Shown here one piece after another: positions 6,398 to 42,108 of a DNA stretch of 44,742 nt. Both the position numbers and the translations under genes were made by a program. The DNA comes from a virus: IMG/VR virus record IMGVR_UViG_3300022750_000021, positions 1 through 44,742 of that record. One strand, 5' to 3'. Position 1 is the stretch's first letter. Each line of letters begins with the position of its first letter. The notes beneath the pieces were generated by a model that worked only from the letters and a program-made list of their open reading frames with translations, ran no database searches and was not told the origin of the DNA.

Positions 6398-7147
6398 TTA
6401 GAGATCATCTGCAGTAATCTGGCCTTTAGTTTGGAAGCTTCTTCTAAGTCCCGATGGTACAGTTTCAGAAACTCCGGACTCTTGGAGTCTTTGGGATGCT
6501 TGCTGCAGTAGATCTGCTGCGTCGGCACTTCCTTGCCAGCCAGTCTCAGAAGTAAGATCTGGCAGTCTGTTAGCTTCGGTTGCAAGTTTTGCAACAGCGT
6601 CACTTGTTGCGGTGACAAGACTTCTGGCTCCTTCTCCATCACGAATCTCCACTATTTGGTTTTGCGTGTTAGTAATGAATTTCGCGGCCATCGAAGGTGG
6701 CAAGTTAATCTGTACAATCTGAGTAACTCCAGCACCTACTGGTGCATCGCTCATGCCACGCCGCTTAGTAGCATTAATAACTTGAATAACTCTTAATACA
6801 TCCATTGGCTTAGTAACTAAATTAATAGTCTTAAGCAGCTTATCCAAAGCCTTCTCTTCAATCTCCATATGCTTATTATCAATACTGGTCTGCTTCTGCA
6901 GCACTGCTAACTTCAGCCTGGTAACTTCCTCAGCAAATCTTGGCTCAGCTACAAATTGGCTAATTAGGCTTTCACTCACACCTAAGGTGCTAGCTACCAT
7001 TACCTGGCTAATTCCCTGCCCTAGCAAACTCAGTGCTTTACGTTGCTTGTCATTAAGTCCGCCCTGCCAGTTATCAGCCCCGCTCGCTACTACGCCCGGA
7101 GACGTCTGGGCTGCTGTACTAACCTCTTGACCTACTATCATATTCAT
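6398..7147 (-). CDS. terS: Terminase small subunit (putative, 249 aa)
   Basis: First gene of the leftward late block, directly before terL. Residues 30-75 (LNDKQRKALSLLGQGISQVM and following, then LGVSESLISQFV) look like a helix-turn-helix, followed by a long helical region and a central segment with QINLPPSM. This matches small terminases that recognise the packaging site and feed DNA to TerL. A strong GAGGAGGG lies 7 nt before the ATG. The C-terminus ends ITADDL, a peptide echoed in three other phage proteins here. A transcriptional regulator is the main alternative. Confidence 0.65.
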   Translation of the reverse strand: MNMIVGQEVSTAAQTSPGVVASGADNWQGGLNDKQRKALSLLGQGISQVMVASTLGVSESLISQFVAEPRFAEEVTRLKLAVLQKQTSIDNKHMEIEEKALDKLLKTINLVTKPMDVLRVIQVINATKRRGMSDAPVGAGVTQIVQINLPPSMAAKFITNTQNQIVEIRDGEGARSLVTATSDAVAKLATEANRLPDLTSETGWQGSADAADLLQQASQRLQESGVSETVPSGLRRSFQTKGQITADDL

Positions 7148-8403: not shown

Positions 8404-8460
8404 AGGTGGAATCAGGTAGCTAGCGCCTTTCAGCTAGCATTGAAAGTGGAGAATATGCAA

Positions 8461-9117
8461 ATGAAAACCATTATCGGCAACCAGACTTTTAAGAAAGTAT
8501 CTGCTAAGCAAGCTGAACTGTTTCCAGTATTGGCTAGTAAGCTTGGTATCCAGCGCCCGGCAGTTAAGTTTGATTTGCCTGAATATGAGGCAGCGGATTT
8601 AGAAATGCTCGCTACTAGCCATGGTTCTGTAATGCTCACTTGCTTGAATGAGGCACTTAGCCAGTTTGCTAAAGCCCAGTTTGCAGCTAACCCAACTGAC
8701 TGGGAATTTAAGCCTAGTTTGGAAAGCCTGAGTCTGGAAGCATTGGCAGCTAGCTTTGAATCTACTAGCCGTGGTCGTGTACTGACGCTAGACAATGCTA
8801 ATAAACTGGCTACCTGGCTAACTACAAACTTGGCTGCAATTGTTACTGGCGTGCAAGTAAGTGACCCAAGTTATCAAGCTACCAATGCCCAAGCAATTAT
8901 TGCAGTGGTATTGAAATACACAACCTATGAAAGCAAAGGTGCTGCATTTCTGGAAAAGGTAGTTATGCGATTGAATCAGTTGCTAGAATCAATCATGGAT
9001 AGTGAAGACTTGCTAGTTAGCTTTAGCGAAGAGCCTAATTTGGCCGCTGTATTTGAAGCACTGATTAAGAAGTTTAGCCGTGCTGATGAGGCTGAGATTA
9101 GTGAGGATGCGCTGTAA
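8461..9117 (+). CDS. Unknown early protein, 218 aa (paralog 1 of a pair)
   Basis: I choose ATG 8461 (MKTIIGNQ), 9 nt after GGAG; ATG 8455 would leave only 3 nt. Own promoter upstream and intrinsic terminator downstream make it a single-gene unit. It resembles the protein at 15594-16202: both have QRP-x-V near residue 33 followed by a proline-glutamate, alternating helical stretches, similar length, and end ISEDAL versus ITEDSL. The isolated transcription unit suggests high early expression. No family recognised; a DNA-end or nucleoid-associated or host-inhibitory role are all open. Confidence 0.75.
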   Translation: MKTIIGNQTFKKVSAKQAELFPVLASKLGIQRPAVKFDLPEYEAADLEMLATSHGSVMLTCLNEALSQFAKAQFAANPTDWEFKPSLESLSLEALAASFESTSRGRVLTLDNANKLATWLTTNLAAIVTGVQVSDPSYQATNAQAIIAVVLKYTTYESKGAAFLEKVVMRLNQLLESIMDSEDLLVSFSEEPNLAAVFEALIKKFSRADEAEISEDAL

Positions 9118-13063: not shown

Positions 13064-13075
13064 GGAAACTTGAAA

Positions 13076-14884
13076 GTGGCTATATTAGAAACTCCAATTG
13101 AGCGCCTTAAGCGCATGGCTAGGGAAAGTAGGGAACGTGCTAATGGCACACCTGCTGCACCACTAGATCAGAAAGCTGTAATAGAAGCATTGGCTGATTT
13201 GCCAGTACCTGCACCAGCTAGCATAAATGAATTTAATGGAATTGCTCTAACTGAGCGCCAAATGCTAGGTGTGACTTATGCAGTGCAGGGGTCTAGTTTC
13301 TGCATGACGGGCGCAGCGGGTACCGGTAAGACAACTACCACGCGTAATATTGTATCCGCTCTAATCATGAGCAATAAGATACCAACTCTAAGCATTACCC
13401 ACAGATACCTGCAAAGTGGCAGACCTGGAATTGCAGGCTGTGCATTTACTAACAAAGCTGTGCAGAACATCAAGCGAGTTATGCCAGAAGACTTGCAAGC
13501 TAACTTCCTTACAATACATAAGTTGCTTGAGTTTGAACCTGTGTACTATGAGGAGTACGATAGCGAAAAAGGTCGCATGGTTAACAAGATGGAGTTTAGG
13601 CCAGCTCGTAATCAATATAACCCACTGCCTGAATCATTAAAGGTACTGATAATTGAAGAAGCAACTATGGTATCCATTGAACTATGGAATCAGCTATTCG
13701 ATGCACTGCCAGTTGGTGGGAATATACAGATTATCCTCATTGGAGACATCCAGCAGTTACCGCCCGTATTTGGTAAGTCTATTTTCATCCACGCGATGCA
13801 AGTTGGTATCAAAGTAGTAGAGCTAGATCAAGTACACCGGCAGGCATTAGATAGCCCAATTCTGGAACTGGCTCACCGGGTACTATCTGGTAAGATCATT
13901 CCTAGCGTAGAGCTTAAGGACTGGAATAAGGAAACTGGTAGCGGTAAGCTTACCATTGTACCCTGGAAAAAAGACTTAGGTCCTGATCTAGGGTGCCGCA
14001 AAGTAGCTAAGGATTTCCTGCCTAAGAAGATTGAGGCTGGGGAATATAACCCATTTGAAGACGTGATACTTTGCCCATTTAATAAATCGTTTGGTTGCAT
14101 AGAAATAAATAAGCACATTGCTACATATTTAGCCCAGTCGGAAGTATGGAATCCTAATGGAGAGTTAGTGCATGAAGTAATTGGTGGAGTAAATACCAAG
14201 TATTTCAGGATTGGCGATAAGGTACTGTGGAATAAGACTGAGCATGTAGTTACAGATATAAGAGTTAACCAGAAGTATTATGAAAAAGATCCACAGTTGC
14301 CTAGCCGAACTATGGATTACTGGGGAACTGAAACTGATGACCATGCCCAGGATGTTATGGAGGCCATGCTAGGCGGAGATACTAGCCACTTAAGTGACGC
14401 ACACAATGCTAAGATGGATTTGCTGCTTAAGACGTTTAGTGACCTAAGCGATAGCATGGAAGGAGAGAAGGCAACTAGCAGGCAGTGCAGCCATATAATT
14501 ACAGTTAAGTCTGAGGAGTTTGGTGAATACAAAATAGAAACTAGCGGTGATCTAGGAAACTTAGATCTGGCTTATGCAATTACAGTGCACAAGTCACAAG
14601 GTTCTGAGTACCGTAGAGTATTCTTTGTTACTGATAAGTCACATGCAACTATGCTGTTTCGGGAGCTGGTATACACAGCTATCACACGGGCTAAAGAAGA
14701 GCTGATAATTATCTGCCCACCTAGCTTATTTGTGCAGGGCATTACTAGTCAGCGCCTTCCAGGTAAGACACTAGTAGAGAAGATCGCAGCATTCCAGCGA
14801 TACCTTGAAGTAAGTAAAGTCAGCGAGACTGAGCTGCCCAGGGGCATGGCACTATTAACTAAGGGCGTGGAGGAAGCAGCATGA
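13076..14884 (+). CDS. SF1 RecD-like DNA helicase (602 aa)
   Basis: Start chosen at GTG 13076, 9 nt after AAGGA; the in-frame TTG at 13070 would sit on that site. Helicase motifs in order: Q-motif LTERQ, Walker A GAAGTGKTT (about 79-87), Ia AFTNKAVQNI, motif II IIEEATMV (about 191), III IGDIQQLPPV, V ITVHKSQGSEY, VI YTAITRAKEE (about 533). This is the RecD/Dda arrangement, a 5'-3' translocase acting in replication or recombination. Motif II has Glu-Glu instead of the usual Asp-Glu. The N-terminus (TPIERLKRMA) resembles a peptide seen in other proteins of this phage. The next gene overlaps by 4 bases. Confidence 0.9.
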   Translation: MAILETPIERLKRMARESRERANGTPAAPLDQKAVIEALADLPVPAPASINEFNGIALTERQMLGVTYAVQGSSFCMTGAAGTGKTTTTRNIVSALIMSNKIPTLSITHRYLQSGRPGIAGCAFTNKAVQNIKRVMPEDLQANFLTIHKLLEFEPVYYEEYDSEKGRMVNKMEFRPARNQYNPLPESLKVLIIEEATMVSIELWNQLFDALPVGGNIQIILIGDIQQLPPVFGKSIFIHAMQVGIKVVELDQVHRQALDSPILELAHRVLSGKIIPSVELKDWNKETGSGKLTIVPWKKDLGPDLGCRKVAKDFLPKKIEAGEYNPFEDVILCPFNKSFGCIEINKHIATYLAQSEVWNPNGELVHEVIGGVNTKYFRIGDKVLWNKTEHVVTDIRVNQKYYEKDPQLPSRTMDYWGTETDDHAQDVMEAMLGGDTSHLSDAHNAKMDLLLKTFSDLSDSMEGEKATSRQCSHIITVKSEEFGEYKIETSGDLGNLDLAYAITVHKSQGSEYRRVFFVTDKSHATMLFRELVYTAITRAKEELIIICPPSLFVQGITSQRLPGKTLVEKIAAFQRYLEVSKVSETELPRGMALLTKGVEEAA

Positions 14885-15496: not shown

Positions 15497-15532
15497 TTGA
15501 CCGTGGGGGCCGTCTGAGAGACAATTGCCCCC
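15497..15532 (+). promoter_or_regulatory. Promoter with inverted repeat over the -10 box
   Basis: TTGACC (15497-15502), 17-nt spacer, GACAAT (15520-15525). GGGGGC (15505-15510) and GCCCCC (15527-15532) form a 6-bp inverted repeat flanking the -10 region. Same design as the promoter at 8364-8403. It drives paralog 2. Confidence 0.6.
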
Positions 15533-15593
15533 GCGATGCGGCATTCCCCTTGCTCTAATCAATCGCCACTCTCCTATACTTAAGGAAACAACC

Positions 15594-16202
15594 ATGACTA
15601 TCGTTGCTCTCACCCAAACTGCTGATGCCAAGTTTAACTACCGCGCTGACCGTGTTACTAAAGTACAGCGCCCTTCGGTTGAACTTAAAGTTCCTGAAAT
15701 TACTGTTTCTGCCGTTGCAAACTACCTGTCCAGCGAAGACAACAAAGTTGTACTGCTGGTTACTGATACCCTGCAAGGCGTACTGAATAGCTACATTCGT
15801 GGCTTTGCTGATGCAGATGCTACCTTTGACCAAGCTAAACTGGATGCGCTGATTGCAGAAGGTAAGGTAGGTCTGGAAGTAATTGCTAACCTGCCACGTA
15901 GCGAGCGCAATACTCTTACCAATGCTGATCTGGAAGAGTTTGGTAAAGTTTACTTCAAGCTGGCTCAAGAGCTGCTGGATAAAACTGAATCCCAAGCAGT
16001 TGCTGCTGTTACTGTATTTAACAGCCGCATTAAGAAGATTGCTGGTAACACCAACGCACTGCAGAAAGTTAAAGGCGACCTGGAAAACTTCCTGGGTCTG
16101 GCTGATGACTCGGTACTGGAAGAGCACAACCGTGCACTGACTTACCTGATTGCCAAGTTGGAAGAGTACCTGGCTGAAGATATTACTGAAGACAGCCTGT
16201 AA
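15594..16202 (+). CDS. Unknown abundant early protein, 202 aa (paralog 2 of a pair)
   Basis: Start ATG 15594 (MTIVALTQ) after AAGGAAACAACC; the upstream in-frame ATG lacks a site and precedes the likely transcript start. Related to the protein at 8461-9117: QRPSVELKVPE aligns with QRPAVKFDLPE, the following helices align, and both end in an acidic xEDxL tail. Codon use is strikingly biased (CTG, GGT, CGT, GTT, AAC) like the capsid gene, implying very high expression. Residues 60-110 include an acidic FADADATFDQAKLDALIAEG helix. Function unknown; high abundance suggests a structural, DNA-coating or decoy role. Confidence 0.75.
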   Translation: MTIVALTQTADAKFNYRADRVTKVQRPSVELKVPEITVSAVANYLSSEDNKVVLLVTDTLQGVLNSYIRGFADADATFDQAKLDALIAEGKVGLEVIANLPRSERNTLTNADLEEFGKVYFKLAQELLDKTESQAVAAVTVFNSRIKKIAGNTNALQKVKGDLENFLGLADDSVLEEHNRALTYLIAKLEEYLAEDITEDSL

Positions 16203-16290
16203 GAAATACATAATTGGTAGGCCAACTGCCAATTTACTTAGCCCGCGTCTGCTTGTATAGAGATTGCGGGTTAAGTCAGTAGTAAGGTAT

Positions 16291-16413
16291 GTTGGTATCT
16301 GGTGTGAGTACAGGTTCGATCCCTGCTGAGTTGACTTATGTTTCATTCGATACTCAGAATGCTGGTGCATAGATAAGACGTAATATTGTAGGTTCGATCC
16401 CTACCACCAACAC
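16291..16413 (+). other. Degenerate tRNA-like element(s)
   Basis: Two GGTTCGATCCC T-arms occur 77 nt apart: CAGG-TTCGATC-CCTG (16312-16326) and GTAGG-TTCGATC-CCTAC (16389-16405). The second is followed by ACCAACA, which pairs perfectly with TGTTGGT at 16291-16297. No canonical D-arm or anticodon arm of correct spacing can be drawn for either, so these are not standard tRNAs; they may be relics or T-loop modules of a larger RNA. Confidence 0.4.
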
Positions 16414-16780
16414 AGCTTACTAGTGAGAAGGGGCAGCACAGAGCATACTCACTAAAATAAAAATTAGCCTAAGAGTCCAATTGTTGTATGACTCAAGCAC
16501 GGATTGTACCGTGGAGTGGTGAAGTATTGCCGGCTAGGGTAGTGATACTAGCAGCTAACACTAAGCTACTAAAAATTCTACAAAGAATAAGCTTATAACG
16601 GTTGCTAGTTCCGAGGGAATTGATCCCCTAAATACTAGCTAGAATTCAGGTAGCCATGTTGAGCTTTAATGCCCCTAGGTATACGAAGGGCGCCTAAATA
16701 GAGATGCCCTGACCTACACTCTTTAAAAAGTAGGCTTCAATTTCAAAGGTACGGGAACTTATATCCCTATCTCAAAACGC

Positions 16781-16825
16781 CCAAGGGGTTAGCTGCTTAC
16801 ATTGCTAACTTGCTTGGGTTTTTTA
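16781..16825 (+). terminator. Branched intrinsic terminator
   Basis: CCCAAG (16781-16786) pairs with CTTGGG (16814-16819), with an inner TTAGC/GCTAA stem, followed by a run of T. Confidence 0.85.
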
Positions 16826-16854
16826 TGCACGCTAGAAAATAGAGGTAAGTGAGT

Positions 16855-17124
16855 ATGGAAATTGTGACTAAAGCATTCCCAGCGGTAGGTGATACAGTAG
16901 CAATCCTGCATACAGTTAAGCGTACCTCAGCAGGTGAAGTACTGGGAGTTATGCGGGCTGATAGCACAGCAGTAGTTACTATTACCGCAGTGTACCTGGA
17001 TGGTGCAGTACGTACAGGACTTTCTGATGTATGGGAAGTTCGTAAAGCAGGGGACGAAAGTAAAGCAACCCGCGGTGCTAAGTGGGCAACAGTAAATCCA
17101 ATGCACGGAGAACGACATGTCTAA
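16855..17124 (+). CDS. Unknown protein, 89 aa
   Basis: I use the ATG at 16855 (MEIVTKAFPA), 9 nt after GAGG, rather than the in-frame GTG six bases earlier. Predicted mainly beta: PAVGDTVAILHTVKRTSAGE and VVTITAVYLDGAVRTGLSD resemble a small barrel. It overlaps the start of the dUTPase gene by 8 bases. No family recognised. Confidence 0.65.
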   Translation: MEIVTKAFPAVGDTVAILHTVKRTSAGEVLGVMRADSTAVVTITAVYLDGAVRTGLSDVWEVRKAGDESKATRGAKWATVNPMHGERHV

Positions 17125-17887
17125 TACAATTCCACCATTTGAACAAATACGCGGGTTTAACTTTACAGTTCCGCAAGTTGAAAAACTTATGCGCATGCAA
17201 GATACGCTTAATACATATGTACATCCTAAGTGGAGAGACCAAGATTTTAATTGGGAACTTGCTATCTTGGACGAGTGCATGGAAATCCATGGGCATCTGG
17301 GCTGGAAGTGGTGGAAAGGTGCTAACTACAAGCAAGGAGTTACAGCAGCTAACGTAGCTCAAATTAAACTAGAGCTTATAGATATCTTGCACTTTGCAGT
17401 TAGCCGCTATATTCAGGATTATCCAGTACTGATTGGTAGGAACGCACACGATCTAGCAATGCGGCTTAGTACGACGTGCACAGTTCCTAGCTTTGAATTC
17501 TCTAGTTTAATTTGCCACTTTCAGGCAGATGTAGCAAATAGAAAGTTCATTGAAAGCATTCTAATTAACTTGATGCAACTAATGCATGTATTGAGAATGT
17601 CTGAGCAGGAGGTGTTGGAAACTTATACCCAGAAGTATGTACTGAATAAGTTCCGTCAGGATCATGGGTATAAAGATGGTAGCTATGTTAAGGAGTGGAA
17701 TCTTAGCACAGGACTGGGCATACTGCCAGACTCTGGTTGCGAAGCTACTGCCGTACTTACGTTTGAAGATAACGAAGTATTGGCCAAAGAGGTTAAGCAT
17801 ATAGAACTGGAGGGGCAGGATACTGCGGACGAACATATCCTTTACAGCCGGCTCGAAGCTCTATACAATAGCCGTCTTAACCAATAG
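17117..17887 (+). CDS. Dimeric dUTPase / all-alpha NTP pyrophosphatase (256 aa)
   Basis: Hydrolyses dUTP to dUMP, keeping uracil out of phage DNA and feeding dTMP synthesis. The metal-binding signature of the MazG/dimeric dUTPase fold is visible as E53-x-x-E56 in LDECMEIHGHLGWKWWK and E86-x-x-D89 in KLELIDILHF. The characteristic later segment YVLNKFRQDHGY (near residue 180) matches the usual N-x-x-R-Q-x-x-GY motif. A C-terminal extension of about 60 residues after this is unrecognised. Start ATG 17117 has GGAGAACGAC upstream and overlaps the preceding gene. Confidence 0.85.
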   Translation: MSNTIPPFEQIRGFNFTVPQVEKLMRMQDTLNTYVHPKWRDQDFNWELAILDECMEIHGHLGWKWWKGANYKQGVTAANVAQIKLELIDILHFAVSRYIQDYPVLIGRNAHDLAMRLSTTCTVPSFEFSSLICHFQADVANRKFIESILINLMQLMHVLRMSEQEVLETYTQKYVLNKFRQDHGYKDGSYVKEWNLSTGLGILPDSGCEATAVLTFEDNEVLAKEVKHIELEGQDTADEHILYSRLEALYNSRLNQ

Positions 17888-17913: not shown

Positions 17914-18561
17914 ATGGCTGAGTCGCCACTAGATAGATTGAAAAGGCTGGCAGCGGAAAAGCGTGCAGCAACTTTGGCAGCTCAGCCAGCTGTAGTAGAA
18001 ACTAAGCAGCCTGAGGTAGTTAGCGATGAGCGAGTTGGAGAAGTCTCTGGAGACCCAAGAGAGTCTGGTGGAATATTGTTCACCGGAGCAAACCCTGGAG
18101 AATCTAGTACAGGGGACAACCAAACTACTGGACAGTCACCAGTTCTTGAACAAGAAACTCCAGACCGAGGAGCAGTTGAACAAGACACTAGTATCAGTGA
18201 TAGCGGATGTGCACTGGCTACGATTCAAGTGGAAGATGCTGGCACTGTTGTTAGTGATAACAAATCTATCGACATTGGCTTACCAGTATCTGATCACCCA
18301 CTAGCAATGCAGTTTGCTGAAATGGAAGCAGCGTTACTTGCTAAAGATCCACAGTTCAAAACTATCTTGCGCCAGATACATAACCATCTTGGTAAAGAGC
18401 CAGAACTTGTAACTCAGATGACTGAGCAGGAGATCCAGTTGATCGTAACTGGCCTAGTTGTATTTGCAAATGCTGAAATTGTAGAGCCAGCTAAAGCTAA
18501 GGCCACAAAGTCTAAGATAGCAGCAGCTAAGAAAGTTGTAATTAGTGCAGATGATTTGTAA
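17914..18561 (+). CDS. Unknown 215-aa protein with disordered middle, hosts an overlapping gene
   Basis: Start ATG 17914 after CGAGGATACTATA. N-terminal helix SPLDRLKRLAAEKRA is followed by a long acidic, Ser/Thr/Gly-rich low-complexity region (about 30-130), a folded-looking helical part (QFAEMEAALLAKDPQFKTIL and on, 130-185), a Lys/Ala linker, and the terminal peptide ISADDL. The disordered middle coincides with a second reading frame at 18026-18304. The combination of terminal peptides shared with other phage proteins suggests an adaptor, but no family is recognised. Confidence 0.75.
   Translation: MAESPLDRLKRLAAEKRAATLAAQPAVVETKQPEVVSDERVGEVSGDPRESGGILFTGANPGESSTGDNQTTGQSPVLEQETPDRGAVEQDTSISDSGCALATIQVEDAGTVVSDNKSIDIGLPVSDHPLAMQFAEMEAALLAKDPQFKTILRQIHNHLGKEPELVTQMTEQEIQLIVTGLVVFANAEIVEPAKAKATKSKIAAAKKVVISADDL
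18026..18304 (+). CDS. Candidate overlapping gene: 92-aa coiled-coil, tail-anchored membrane protein
   Basis: A complete ATG-to-stop frame embedded in another phase within the 17914-18561 gene. GAGGT lies 8 nt before its ATG. The product has a charged helical N-terminal part (MSELEKSLETQESLVEY, then KLLDSHQFLNKKLQTEEQL), a basic hinge WLRFKWK and one C-terminal membrane helix MLALLLVITNLSTLAYQYLI. This coherent topology is unlikely for a shadow frame, and the host frame is low-complexity exactly here. Spanin, holin-regulator or superinfection-exclusion roles are possible; function unproven. Confidence 0.5.
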   Translation: MSELEKSLETQESLVEYCSPEQTLENLVQGTTKLLDSHQFLNKKLQTEEQLNKTLVSVIADVHWLRFKWKMLALLLVITNLSTLAYQYLITH

Positions 18562-18577: not shown

Positions 18578-19051
18578 GTGGCTAAGTTTAAAACTAATCT
18601 ATGGACTTTAGTTAAAGCTGATAAGCCAAATCCTAAAGATCAGTTGCTACTGGCTGTTACTCTCTGGTTGCGTACTTACGATCGTGATGAGCCAACTTGG
18701 CTAGGACTAGAGAGCCTGCTTAATTTACTGGTAGAGTTCACCACAGAACTTAAGCTAGGCTTGAATGTTGATGAACTGCCAGCGGGCAGGGTAGTATCAA
18801 GCGCTGGAGATATCTGGCGTGTAGATGGGCCAGGTAAGTTTGTATATGTAAGTGACAACTGGGCAACCGAGTTTGATTTAAAAGGTTGCTATAGTACTGA
18901 AATCCAGTACGGTGTACATAAGCGCTGGATAGAGTGGGCAATGGCACATGCAATATGTAATTTGGATCACGCTGGTATTGGTTGGAAAAGAACTAATACT
19001 AGGGCTTGTAAAACTATTGGCGGCATGACTGTAGCGGAGTTTTTATTATGA
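18578..19051 (+). CDS. Unknown protein, 157 aa
   Basis: Starts at GTG 18578, 8 nt after AGGGAG, 16 nt after the previous stop. Begins MAKFKTNLWTLVKADKPNPK; middle is a leucine-rich helix pair (LESLLNLLVEFTTELKLGL) and the C-terminal half is beta-rich with several Trp and three Cys. Its last codons overlap a small membrane-protein gene (ATGA). No family recognised. Confidence 0.65.
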   Translation: MAKFKTNLWTLVKADKPNPKDQLLLAVTLWLRTYDRDEPTWLGLESLLNLLVEFTTELKLGLNVDELPAGRVVSSAGDIWRVDGPGKFVYVSDNWATEFDLKGCYSTEIQYGVHKRWIEWAMAHAICNLDHAGIGWKRTNTRACKTIGGMTVAEFLL

Positions 19052-19164
19052 ACTGGGAAATGGTACGCGGTATTATAGTTTGTGCATTATGTGCTAAGAT
19101 TACACTTATTGTATTTGAGCACTTGGGTTGGATTGTTAAAACTGCAAGCTATGGAGAATTCTAA
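19048..19164 (+). CDS. Small membrane protein, 38 aa
   Basis: Short gene bracketed by translational coupling: its ATG overlaps the upstream stop as ATGA (19048-19051) and its TAA overlaps the next ATG as TAATG (19162-19166). The product has one hydrophobic segment, MVRGIIVCALCAKITLIVF, then a Gly-Trp turn and a short polar tail. The double overlap makes a real gene likely despite the length. Role unknown; small inner-membrane peptides in phage early regions can alter host membrane functions. Confidence 0.65.
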   Translation: MNWEMVRGIIVCALCAKITLIVFEHLGWIVKTASYGEF

Positions 19165-20183
19165 TGAACTATCTAGAAAGTCTAGATAACTTACCAAACT
19201 TTCTAGACGAAGCTGCACCTACTGCACTGATGATTCCAGTAGTGCAGCTTGAGCCAGGGCAGATTGATCCTAGATTTGGGCGGCTTAGTTACAGTGGGCT
19301 TACTACCTTGCACGCTTGCCCACGTAAGTTTCAACTAGATAAGTTGCAAGCTGAGAAAGCTGCACAAGATATTAGTACCTCAGTTACATTTGCATATGGG
19401 CATGCAATTGGGGAAGGGATTCAGCAGTATCTAATAAATAGATCTGTAGTGGATGAGCAAGTTGCATTTGATACTGCATTATGGAAAATGTTCTTAGCTT
19501 GGGACTGTGATTTGCTGGCTGAAAACGACAAGCAGAAGAAAAGTTTCTTTAGGGCAGTAGCTACTATGCTGCAATTCAGGCACTTGATAAGAGAAGGACT
19601 GCTTGGAAACGAGTGGGTAGTAGCAGAGTTTAATGGCAAGCCAGCTGCTGAACTTAGTTTCCGCATTGATTTAGGTGATGGATTCTATTACCGTGGATAC
19701 GTGGACTTGGTACTGCGCAATACTGTAACTGGTGAGTTGCTAATTCTGGAGATCAAAACATCCAGCGCAAACTACGTAAACCACTACGGATACAAGAATA
19801 GCGCACAGGCAATAGGTTACTCAGTTGTACTAGATACTATTGCACCTGGTACCAGTAGTTACAGCGTGCAGTATCTTGTATACATGACAAAGCTAGAAAG
19901 GTTTGAGCCATTTGATTTCCCTAAAACATTCCGGCAGAGGGTCCAGTGGCTACAGGATCTTATGTGGGATAAGAAACAAATCGCGGACATGGTTGCATTC
20001 TACGGTAATGATGGAGTGTGGCAGGTTCGTGGAGAATCTTGCACTGACTTTGGTAAAGTATGTGAGTATATGGATATGTGTGGAATGGATACTTCCCGCA
20101 TGACAGCGCCGCTACTTGAAACTCAGTTGCATGAAGATAAAGAATATCAGTTTGAATTCACCATTCAGGAGTTACTATCATGA
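19164..20183 (+). CDS. Cas4/RecB-like PD-(D/E)XK nuclease (339 aa)
   Basis: Likely 5'-3' or single-strand exonuclease partner of the recombinase encoded next. N-terminal TTLHACPRKFQLDKLQ (about 45-60) is the usual start of Cas4/RecB-family nucleases. The active site appears as GYVDLVLRN (D about 180) and LLILEIKTSS (E-x-K about 195-197), followed by a QAIGYSVVL helix matching the RecB Q-x-x-x-Y motif. Cysteines near the C-terminus (CTDFGKVCEYMDMCGM) could hold an iron-sulphur cluster as in Cas4/AddB. Coupled on both sides by overlapping codons. Confidence 0.82.
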   Translation: MNYLESLDNLPNFLDEAAPTALMIPVVQLEPGQIDPRFGRLSYSGLTTLHACPRKFQLDKLQAEKAAQDISTSVTFAYGHAIGEGIQQYLINRSVVDEQVAFDTALWKMFLAWDCDLLAENDKQKKSFFRAVATMLQFRHLIREGLLGNEWVVAEFNGKPAAELSFRIDLGDGFYYRGYVDLVLRNTVTGELLILEIKTSSANYVNHYGYKNSAQAIGYSVVLDTIAPGTSSYSVQYLVYMTKLERFEPFDFPKTFRQRVQWLQDLMWDKKQIADMVAFYGNDGVWQVRGESCTDFGKVCEYMDMCGMDTSRMTAPLLETQLHEDKEYQFEFTIQELLS

Positions 20184-34689: not shown

Positions 34690-35883
34690 TTAGGCTCCTT
34701 TCTTATTCCACAGTTTATCGAAAGCCCGCTCAGTAATAAACAACCCAATCAAATGGCAAACAGGTTCGCCAATAAACTTGGTAATTGTTCCCAGCGGATA
34801 CTTAACATGATCAGCAAAGGTGCCGCGAGTAGCAAGCAAGGAAGTGCGACTACGAGCAACGGGCAAAGTAAATTTAGTCCAGCCCTCGTGACCTTTATCA
34901 ATCTTGGCTGCGATACCAGTAGCCCAGGCTTGGTAGCCAGCAACCGTGAATGGGTGCATAGTCTCAAGATACTCACTCCCTTTGGCATGCAAGTCCTTAT
35001 CTAGCAACCCGCGATTCTTAAGAGCTGTACAGATTACAGATCCACCGGACGTACCACCGCGGCTACCACTATTATTAGATCCACCTAGCCCACTTACAAT
35101 GGAGCCAATAATTCCACCAATACTTCCCAGCCCACCTAGTCCGCCAAGTCCGACACTGGTAGATCCTGTATCAGAGTCAATACCAAAGTTAATGCCGAAC
35201 CCACCTTGGCCAGTAGAACCGCCACCGCCACCGCTACTAATTGTAGAAGTATTTAGACCGAAACCTTCGCCAGTAGTGATGCCTGTACTACCGCTTGGCA
35301 TTGGGCCACCAAAGTCTCCATAGCCTCCGAAATCAATATCTCCTAGCTGATTCTTTTTAGTGCCAGAGTTACTAAAGATTCCCTCAGAGCTACCACCTCC
35401 AGAGCCTCCACCAAACAGATCACCAATAAGATCTGTTACGTAATTAGCTCCAGATTCCAATGTAGGCCCTAGAGCTTTTGCACCTAGATTAAGTGCAGTG
35501 GATGCAAGAAACGCACCTCCCAAACCAGTAGCTAGATCTTTAGCACTAGTGCCCTGCTGTACTGTAGTCTGGGTTTGTGGAGCAGTTGTAGTAACTGTGG
35601 GCGAGCGCGCAAGCTCTGCTCTATTAGCGGCCTCTGCGTACAGATTGCCAAGCAACGTATCTTCGCTCGTGGAATTATAAATACCAGAACTACGAGCACG
35701 TGCACCAATAGACTTGACGCCACCAGAGCCAGACAGAATCTGGTCAATGATCTGCTGAACACCAGCATCAGATACATTGGTCTGCTGAGTAGTCTTACCC
35801 CCAGAGGTTGTGGTTGTAGACTTCTTATCTTTCATACCACCGATAAGATTAGTTAAAGCGGTTAGCTGATCAATAGCTGCCAT
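34690..35883 (-). CDS. Glycine-rich virion protein, 397 aa (probable internal protein)
   Basis: Start ATG 35883 (MAAIDQLTAL) follows AGGAGAGCAGCT. Architecture: helical N-terminus, Ala-rich hydrophobic segment about 120-150 (LATGLGGAFLASTALNLGA), a long Gly/Ser-rich low-complexity region (about 165-290), and a C-terminal folded part with CTALKNRGLLDKDLHAKGSE. The C-terminal part with its conserved-looking histidines is seen in phage proteins encoded next to internal virion proteins. Probably an ejected protein or part of the internal core; function inferred from place. Confidence 0.6.
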   Translation of the reverse strand: MAAIDQLTALTNLIGGMKDKKSTTTTSGGKTTQQTNVSDAGVQQIIDQILSGSGGVKSIGARARSSGIYNSTSEDTLLGNLYAEAANRAELARSPTVTTTAPQTQTTVQQGTSAKDLATGLGGAFLASTALNLGAKALGPTLESGANYVTDLIGDLFGGGSGGGSSEGIFSNSGTKKNQLGDIDFGGYGDFGGPMPSGSTGITTGEGFGLNTSTISSGGGGGSTGQGGFGINFGIDSDTGSTSVGLGGLGGLGSIGGIIGSIVSGLGGSNNSGSRGGTSGGSVICTALKNRGLLDKDLHAKGSEYLETMHPFTVAGYQAWATGIAAKIDKGHEGWTKFTLPVARSRTSLLATRGTFADHVKYPLGTITKFIGEPVCHLIGLFITERAFDKLWNKKGA

Positions 35884-36397: not shown

Positions 36398-36850
36398 CTA
36401 TTCAATACCAGGCATATAATGCCCAGGAGCTCTGCAGGTTAGTTCATTACCTCGTACTGGGCCATGCTGCCTAAATGAGATATGAATCCAAGTAGGCTCC
36501 AGAATTAATTGATCATATCCTACCAGCTCTTTATTAGCCATAAGCTCCAGTGCAATTTGTTTAGGTGAGCCGAAGCCAGGACATTTAAAATCTACTGCTT
36601 CTCCATTGGAATGCTGAGACTTCTGTGCTCCACCAATTGCATTATTAAGTGCCCACGATCTAAACCAACTAGTAATGTACAGTGGGCGATTATCTAATAC
36701 CTGCCTAACAACTTCCAGTTTAAATGCTGTATATTTCATAGCTTCTAACTGAGCGTCATTAGGTGTATTCAGCATGCCACGATCCTGGGCTGTAGCTGAA
36801 TACGTAGCTTCACGGAAACTAAAGTGTGGAGATAATTGAAAGTTTTTCAC
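36398..36850 (-). CDS. Endolysin, M15-type peptidoglycan peptidase (150 aa)
   Basis: Zinc peptidase of the M15 D-Ala-D-Ala carboxypeptidase/endopeptidase group that cuts peptidoglycan cross-links for lysis or infection. Visible are FSFREATYSATAQDRG near the N-terminus, TSWFRSWALNNAIGG, and zinc ligands H80 and D87 in SQHSNGEAVDF and H123 in WIHISF. Compact single-domain length fits. No signal peptide, so a holin would be needed; the best candidates are the one-helix protein at 41773-42108 and two tiny early peptides. Its start overlaps the stop of the upstream gene as ATGA. Confidence 0.85.
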   Translation of the reverse strand: MKNFQLSPHFSFREATYSATAQDRGMLNTPNDAQLEAMKYTAFKLEVVRQVLDNRPLYITSWFRSWALNNAIGGAQKSQHSNGEAVDFKCPGFGSPKQIALELMANKELVGYDQLILEPTWIHISFRQHGPVRGNELTCRAPGHYMPGIE

Positions 36851-41772: not shown

Positions 41773-42108
41773 TCATGTCTCCTTCTTAGCATGATGTGCT
41801 AAGTCAAAATTGCCTGCACAAAAATCCTCTTCTGTAGGTAGCTTACGTCTAATTTGGACATCTTGGATTGCACGGTAAGCTAGAACTAATTGCTCCTGAG
41901 TTTTAATCTGGTTTGCAGTACACTCAGAATGCTGCTTATCTAATTTAGACATTCGCCAAATTAAAAATAGTATTAACACAAAAGGGGACAGACTCATAAA
42001 AGTCGTCCCCCATTCGTGAAAATCAGCAGCTGTAAATGATCCATTTATTCCTGCAAATGCCACAGTTACTATTCCTGTGGCGCTATTAATCTTTCCTGAA
42101 GGATCCAT
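41773..42108 (-). CDS. Membrane protein, possible holin (111 aa)
   Basis: One strong membrane helix MSLSPFVLILFLIWRM at about residues 38-53, preceded by a polar N-terminal part and followed by a charged helical tail (KLDKQHSECTANQIKTQEQL and on, coiled-coil like). The topology fits a one-helix holin or a small spanin-like protein, or a membrane-anchored accessory to the spike. It lies between adhesin and spike genes, away from the endolysin. Start ATG 42108 follows AGAGGAACTTACC. Holin function is unproven. Confidence 0.55.
   Translation of the reverse strand: MDPSGKINSATGIVTVAFAGINGSFTAADFHEWGTTFMSLSPFVLILFLIWRMSKLDKQHSECTANQIKTQEQLVLAYRAIQDVQIRRKLPTEEDFCAGNFDLAHHAKKET

What the first reader, a model, noticed from the sequence alone, without database searches (positions are those of the whole stretch)
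18026..18304. A 92-aa membrane protein gene nested inside another gene
The embedded frame has its own GAGGT site at good spacing and encodes a coherent coiled-coil plus C-terminal membrane helix protein, while the host frame is low-complexity exactly over it. Such overprinting is known for phage lysis proteins such as Rz1 inside Rz.
Basis: partly seen in the sequence, partly recalled or inferred. Interest (0 to 1): 0.75.

Follow-up and report, generated by a model that had tools for sequence, protein, structure and literature searches.

The report
Overprinted membrane gene in phage linker
A phage gene very probably carries a second, hidden gene in its +1 reading frame that makes a small membrane-anchored protein; related phages have the same arrangement in the same gene although the hidden proteins no longer look alike, but nothing ties it to cell lysis and its function is not shown.

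Summary
ORF 18026-18304 (92 aa, ATG, GAGG 9 nt upstream) lies wholly inside ORF 17914-18561 (215 aa), in its +1 frame, over a linker predicted disordered. On its own it is weak evidence: three other +1 ORFs in the window also combine a Shine-Dalgarno (SD) match with a hydrophobic stretch, and codon usage, residue composition and start-site folding do not favour it.

Orthologues decide the case. The host family is widespread (52 loci), usually as a ~90-aa protein with no linker. Of five relatives with a linker tested, three (L002, L009, L004) carry a +1 ORF with its own SD and a single membrane helix, though host linkers are only ~25% identical and the nested proteins are not alignable. Synonymous-codon shuffles give this in 0, 12 and 159 of 12,000 (window 63). 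L097 keeps SD and ATG but no membrane helix; L013 has nothing; Aeromonas phage P5, also long, has a +1 frame full of stops.

Best reading: a fast-evolving overprinted gene for a cytoplasm-facing, membrane-anchored helical protein made with the replication genes. The Rz1-in-Rz comparison fails: no lipobox, no membrane helix in the host protein, endolysin elsewhere. Superinfection exclusion or host-membrane interference is a guess.

The parts
17914..18561 (+). Host gene, 215 aa: N-terminal helix, disordered linker, four-helix C-terminal domain of a widespread podovirus family of unknown function, ending ISADDL
   Evidence: C-domain 78-85% identical to L002/L009, linker 25-26%
18013..18017 (+). 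Shine-Dalgarno-like GAGGT of the nested gene, 9 nt between GAGG and ATG
   Evidence: GAGG+9 also in L002, L009 and L097, GGAG+7 in L004
18017..18019 (+). TAG in the +1 frame just upstream of the nested ATG, so the open frame begins at the start codon
18026..18304 (+). Nested gene, 92 aa, +1 frame, predicted helical and tail-anchored in the membrane
18083..18235 (+). Region coding the predicted cytoplasmic helix (nested residues 20-70)
   Evidence: AlphaFold2 helix 20-91; split at the hydrophobic stretch by inspection
18236..18295 (+). Predicted membrane helix (nested residues ~71-90), preceded by HWLRFKWK
   Evidence: Kyte-Doolittle maximum 1.66; topology by the positive-inside rule, inferred
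17926..17979 (+). Host N-terminal helix (residues 5-22), not overlapped
18301..18558 (+). Host C-terminal domain (residues 130-215); only its first codons touch the nested stop
17117..17887 (+). Upstream neighbour, dUTPase_2 / NTP pyrophosphohydrolase family
   Evidence: PF08761 E 4.1e-22, phrog_173
19164..20183 (+). Downstream neighbour, PD-(D/E)XK exonuclease
   Evidence: PF12705, phrog_1218

Best explanation
ORF 18026-18304 is a genuine, independently initiated overlapping gene. Ribosomes start at its own SD and ATG inside the message of the host gene and make a 92-aa protein with a helical N-terminal part in the cytoplasm and one C-terminal helix in the inner membrane. The overlap is tolerated because it falls on a disordered, freely variable linker of the host protein; both frames change fast, so nested proteins in related phages keep architecture but not sequence. 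Shown by computation: the reading frames, the start signals, the recurrence in three other lineages, the disorder of the host linker. Inferred: translation, membrane insertion, topology. Guessed: that it is an accessory protein made with the replication genes and acting at the host membrane, for instance in superinfection exclusion or host take-over (about 0.3 within this reading).
For: Same +1 arrangement in L002 (63 aa), L009 (112 aa) and L004 (82 aa). Fixed criterion (+1 ATG ORF >=60 aa, SD, hydrophobic >=1.6): observed in window, L002, L009, L004; in synonymous shuffles 63, 0, 12 and 159 of 12,000; never in the +2 frame. SD at GAGG+9 in three of them, GGAG+7 in L004. Host linkers 25-26% identical, so openness is not inherited from conserved host codons. 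Linker-bearing hosts without such an ORF exist: L013, L097, Aeromonas phage P5. The +1 frame opens only 2-10 codons before the ATG. Other SD-plus-hydrophobic +1 ORFs in the window do not show this pattern: in relatives they follow a conserved host sequence, or gain stops.
Against: Only three independent relatives; L003 and L091 duplicate L002 and L004. Nested proteins are not demonstrably homologous (best z 2.4). The topology of L004 is reversed (membrane helix first). L097, in the same wider clade, has no membrane helix. Codon usage scores the host frame above the nested frame; residue composition is not better than shuffles; start-site folding is like any internal ATG (-9.3 against a mean of -10.4; gene starts -6.7). 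The hydrophobicity threshold was set after seeing the window. No expression data.
Confidence: 0.62

Rival explanations
1. Spandrel: the frame is open by composition. A hydrophilic linker offers few +1 stops, T-rich third positions give leucine-rich +1 peptides, and acidic codons (GAG) give SD-like strings, so such ORFs arise without function.
For: Three other +1 SD-plus-hydrophobic ORFs in the window and several in relatives; shuffled hosts give an open +1 frame as long as observed in 0.1-13% of trials for the four positives; composition and codon usage are undistinguished; L097 shows an open +1 frame without a membrane helix. The phiX174 E/D case shows how third-position T yields leucine in the +1 frame (PMC8227390).
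Against: The shuffles keep the host protein and its codons, and still seldom give the combination; its recurrence in three diverged orthologues has a joint shuffle frequency below about 1e-8, before allowing for the post-hoc threshold.
Confidence: 0.25
2. A lysis gene: embedded spanin, holin or antiholin.
For: Rz1 in Rz (PMC6139136), phiX174 E in D and levivirus lysis genes (PMC7693330) are +1-nested membrane or envelope proteins. L009 has a holin-family protein (phrog_7045, E 9e-11) in the same early region. Fast divergence is typical of lysis proteins.
Against: No lipobox; host protein has no membrane helix; positive-inside rule puts the helical part in the cytoplasm, opposite to an i-spanin; endolysin and structural genes are on the other strand; no PHROGs or Pfam match for any nested protein.
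Confidence: 0.1
3. The internal start is used, but the product is incidental: initiation there tunes translation of the host C-terminal domain or of downstream genes.
For: The start signal (GAGG+9+ATG) is kept even in L097, where the product has no membrane helix.
Against: Does not explain the recurrent membrane helix; the E-[VE]-x-x-[DN]-[DE] host codons that create the signal could be kept by chance or for the host protein.
Confidence: 0.08
4. Programmed frameshift: the host N-terminal helix is fused to the nested membrane segment.
For: Frame relation is +1 and the host N-terminal helix is conserved.
Against: The +1 frame is closed within 2 codons of the ATG in window and L009 and within 10 in L002 and L004, leaving little room; a good SD sits there instead.
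Confidence: 0.03

Closest known systems
phiX174 gene E inside gene D
   Same: About 90-aa membrane protein wholly nested in the +1 frame of an unrelated host gene
   Different: E is the sole lysis protein with an N-terminal membrane helix and is fixed in its family; here the phage has a separate endolysin, the helix is C-terminal, and nested proteins in relatives are not alignable (from PMC8227390 and general knowledge)
Lambda Rz1 inside Rz (embedded two-component spanin)
   Same: +1 nesting over a flexible region of the host protein (PMC6139136)
   Different: Rz1 is a lipoprotein and Rz an i-spanin with an N-terminal membrane helix; neither feature is present here, and the place is the replication region
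Levivirus single-gene lysis (sgl) genes embedded in rep
   Same: SD plus one membrane helix in the +1 frame of a poorly conserved host region, unrelated proteins arising repeatedly (PMC7693330)
   Different: ssRNA phages without any other lysis gene; lytic activity shown there, nothing shown here
Pseudomonas phage Fc02 olg1/olg2 (overlapping genes, exclusion activity)
   Same: Small overlapping phage gene outside a lysis cassette (PMC9936078)
   Different: Temperate phage, 7.9-kDa product with exclusion shown; no sequence relation tested or seen here

Membership tests
Embedded two-component spanin (Rz/Rz1) | Nested product is a lipoprotein with a lipobox | tested here: not met
   Only Cys is in EYCSPEQ, not preceded by a signal sequence; a scan for SD-bearing lipobox ORFs in the window found none
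Embedded two-component spanin (Rz/Rz1) | Host frame encodes an i-spanin with an N-terminal membrane helix and periplasmic coiled coil | tested here: not met
   Host has no membrane-grade hydrophobic segment and is a helix-linker-domain protein of another family
Embedded two-component spanin (Rz/Rz1) | Located with the lysis genes | tested here: not met
   Neighbours are dUTPase, exonuclease, DNA polymerase on the + strand; M15 endolysin at 36398-36850 on the - strand
Holin / antiholin | Match to a holin family | tested here: not met
   No PHROGs or Pfam match for the nested protein at E<=0.001; weak hits only to unrelated families
Overprinted (overlapping) viral gene | Frame and start maintained in orthologues beyond chance | tested here: met
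   Window, L002, L009 and L004 against synonymous shuffles; with L097 and L013 as negatives
Overprinted (overlapping) viral gene | Purifying selection on the nested frame | not testable with these tools
   Relatives are either >99.9% or <50% identical over the host gene; no intermediate pairs found
Overprinted (overlapping) viral gene | Translation of the nested frame | not testable with these tools
   No ribosome profiling or proteomics at hand
Superinfection exclusion protein | Expression blocks infection by related phages | not testable with these tools
   Needs an experiment

The most novel reading that the evidence does not exclude
The disordered linker of this early gene is a standing site for birth and turnover of overprinted membrane proteins in a dsDNA podovirus lineage: unrelated small membrane proteins, even with opposite topology (C-terminal helix in the window, L002 and L009; N-terminal in L004), arose or replaced one another at the same internal start signal.
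Probability: 0.2. Interest if true: 0.7.

Novelty: new member of a known kind. Interest (0 to 1): 0.45.

Why it matters
Overlapping genes are left out by standard phage annotation. Here a long, well-signalled one lies in the replication region of a podovirus lineage, far from the lysis genes where such nesting is usually sought, and it can be followed through orthologues. If real, it adds a membrane function to a region thought to hold only replication and nucleotide-metabolism genes, and gives a tractable case of how a disordered linker can carry a second gene.

Tried and rejected
Direct sequence searches with nested and host proteins in phages and viral contigs found nothing; the relatives came only through DNA polymerase and exonuclease synteny. 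Genome contigs and a DNA pattern added no new relative. Codon-usage scoring, residue-composition scoring and start-site folding do not separate the nested frame from chance, and are reported as negative. Nested proteins could not be aligned with one another. Structure search with the host model gave no PDB match; one viral model (A0A6G5YAZ4, 46% identity) is another unnamed homologue. The idea that the host lengthened over a formerly separate membrane gene was considered: small membrane ORFs do lie near the host in some short-host relatives (e.g. L030 2265-2465, directly upstream), but the nearest short-host relatives have none there, so it is left open.

Full report
What is there. The window is a 44,742-base virus record. 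Its portal and DNA polymerase match, at about 26-32% identity, EBPR podovirus 3, Polaromonas phage Tiera, Aeromonas phage P5 and the Pseudomonas PaP2/119X group; no record of the phage collection matches the central 20 kb at DNA level. Replication and nucleotide genes lie on the + strand, structural genes and an M15 endolysin on the - strand. ORF 18026-18304 lies in the +1 frame of ORF 17914-18561, with GAGG 9 nt upstream of its ATG.

The host gene. A profile of its last ~85 residues finds homologues in 52 loci, nearly always between a small conserved gene and the exonuclease; most are ~90 aa and consist of that domain alone. The window, L002/L003, L009, L004/L091, L097 and L013 have in addition an N-terminal amphipathic helix and a long linker; P5 has a different long extension. 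AlphaFold2 on 45 sequences orders the N-terminal helix and a four-helix C-domain and leaves the linker disordered. Function is unknown: no Pfam, PHROGs or PDB match.

The nested frame by itself. Synonymous shuffles that keep the host protein give a +1 ORF as long as observed in about 0.3% and one as long and as hydrophobic in 0.08-0.28% of trials. That is suggestive but not decisive across a genome, since the window holds three other +1 ORFs with SD and a hydrophobic stretch, at 34749, 3399 and 29663. Codon usage, residue composition and start-site folding add nothing.

The orthologues. In L002 the +1 ORF has 63 aa and ends in a strong membrane helix; in L009 112 aa, helical, with a C-terminal membrane helix; in L004 82 aa with an N-terminal membrane helix. 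All three have an SD at workable spacing. Under one fixed criterion the shuffles give 0, 12 and 159 hits in 12,000 (window 63), and none in the +2 frame. Host linkers are 25-26% identical to the window's, against 78-85% for the C-domain, so the open frames are not a by-product of conserved host residues. Of the other linker-bearing genes, L097 keeps GAGG+9+ATG and a 57-aa ORF without a membrane helix, L013 has none, and P5 has stops throughout. The background ORFs behave differently: in relatives they follow conserved host sequence or acquire stops. The polymerase tree puts window, L002 and L009 together with L004 next and L005 (kin of L097) outside, with weak support; the exonuclease tree pairs L004 with L005. 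One gain with a loss in L097, or two gains, both fit.

Reading. The nested protein is most likely a real product with its helical part in the cytoplasm: positive residues precede the membrane helix in window and L009 and follow it in L004, so the charge rule puts the soluble part inside in each (inference from sequence). It is not an embedded spanin: no lipobox, no membrane helix in the host, wrong gene neighbourhood. Nothing found here points to a function; exclusion or host-membrane interference is offered only because small early phage membrane proteins often do this and an overlapping phage gene with exclusion activity has been described (PMC9936078).

Limits. Three independent positive relatives, a threshold chosen after seeing the window, no close relatives for a selection test, no expression data.

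Noticed in passing
window 6398-7147(-), 8440-9117, 15525-16202, 17914-18561: Four unrelated proteins end in a shared hexapeptide I[ST][AE]D[DAS]L (ITADDL, EISEDAL, DITEDSL, ISADDL), also kept in relatives (ISADAL, VTADAL); it may be a docking tail for a common partner.
   Followed up: partly
window 13070-14884 and 17914-18561, N-termini: The helicase and the host protein share an N-terminal motif P[LI][DE]RLKR[LM]A.
   Followed up: no
L006 5698-5874 and L007 422-598: The neighbouring gene (a homologue of window 18578-19051) has an N-terminal linker with a +1 ORF of 58 aa, SD and a strong N-terminal membrane helix; 13 of 5000 shuffles reach it.
   Followed up: partly
L009 4760-5014: 84-aa protein of a holin family (phrog_7045, E 9.4e-11) in the early region, absent from the window and the other relatives held.
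   Followed up: partly
window 16203-16848: About 650 bases without a convincing ORF, holding two GGTTCGATCCCT strings like tRNA T-arms, but ARAGORN and Rfam find nothing.
   Followed up: partly
window 41773-42108(-): 111-aa protein with one membrane segment beside the depolymerase gene; a possible holin or spanin, no family match.
   Followed up: no
window 34749, 3399, 29663 (-): Other +1 nested ORFs with SD and hydrophobic stretches, taken here as background.
   Followed up: yes
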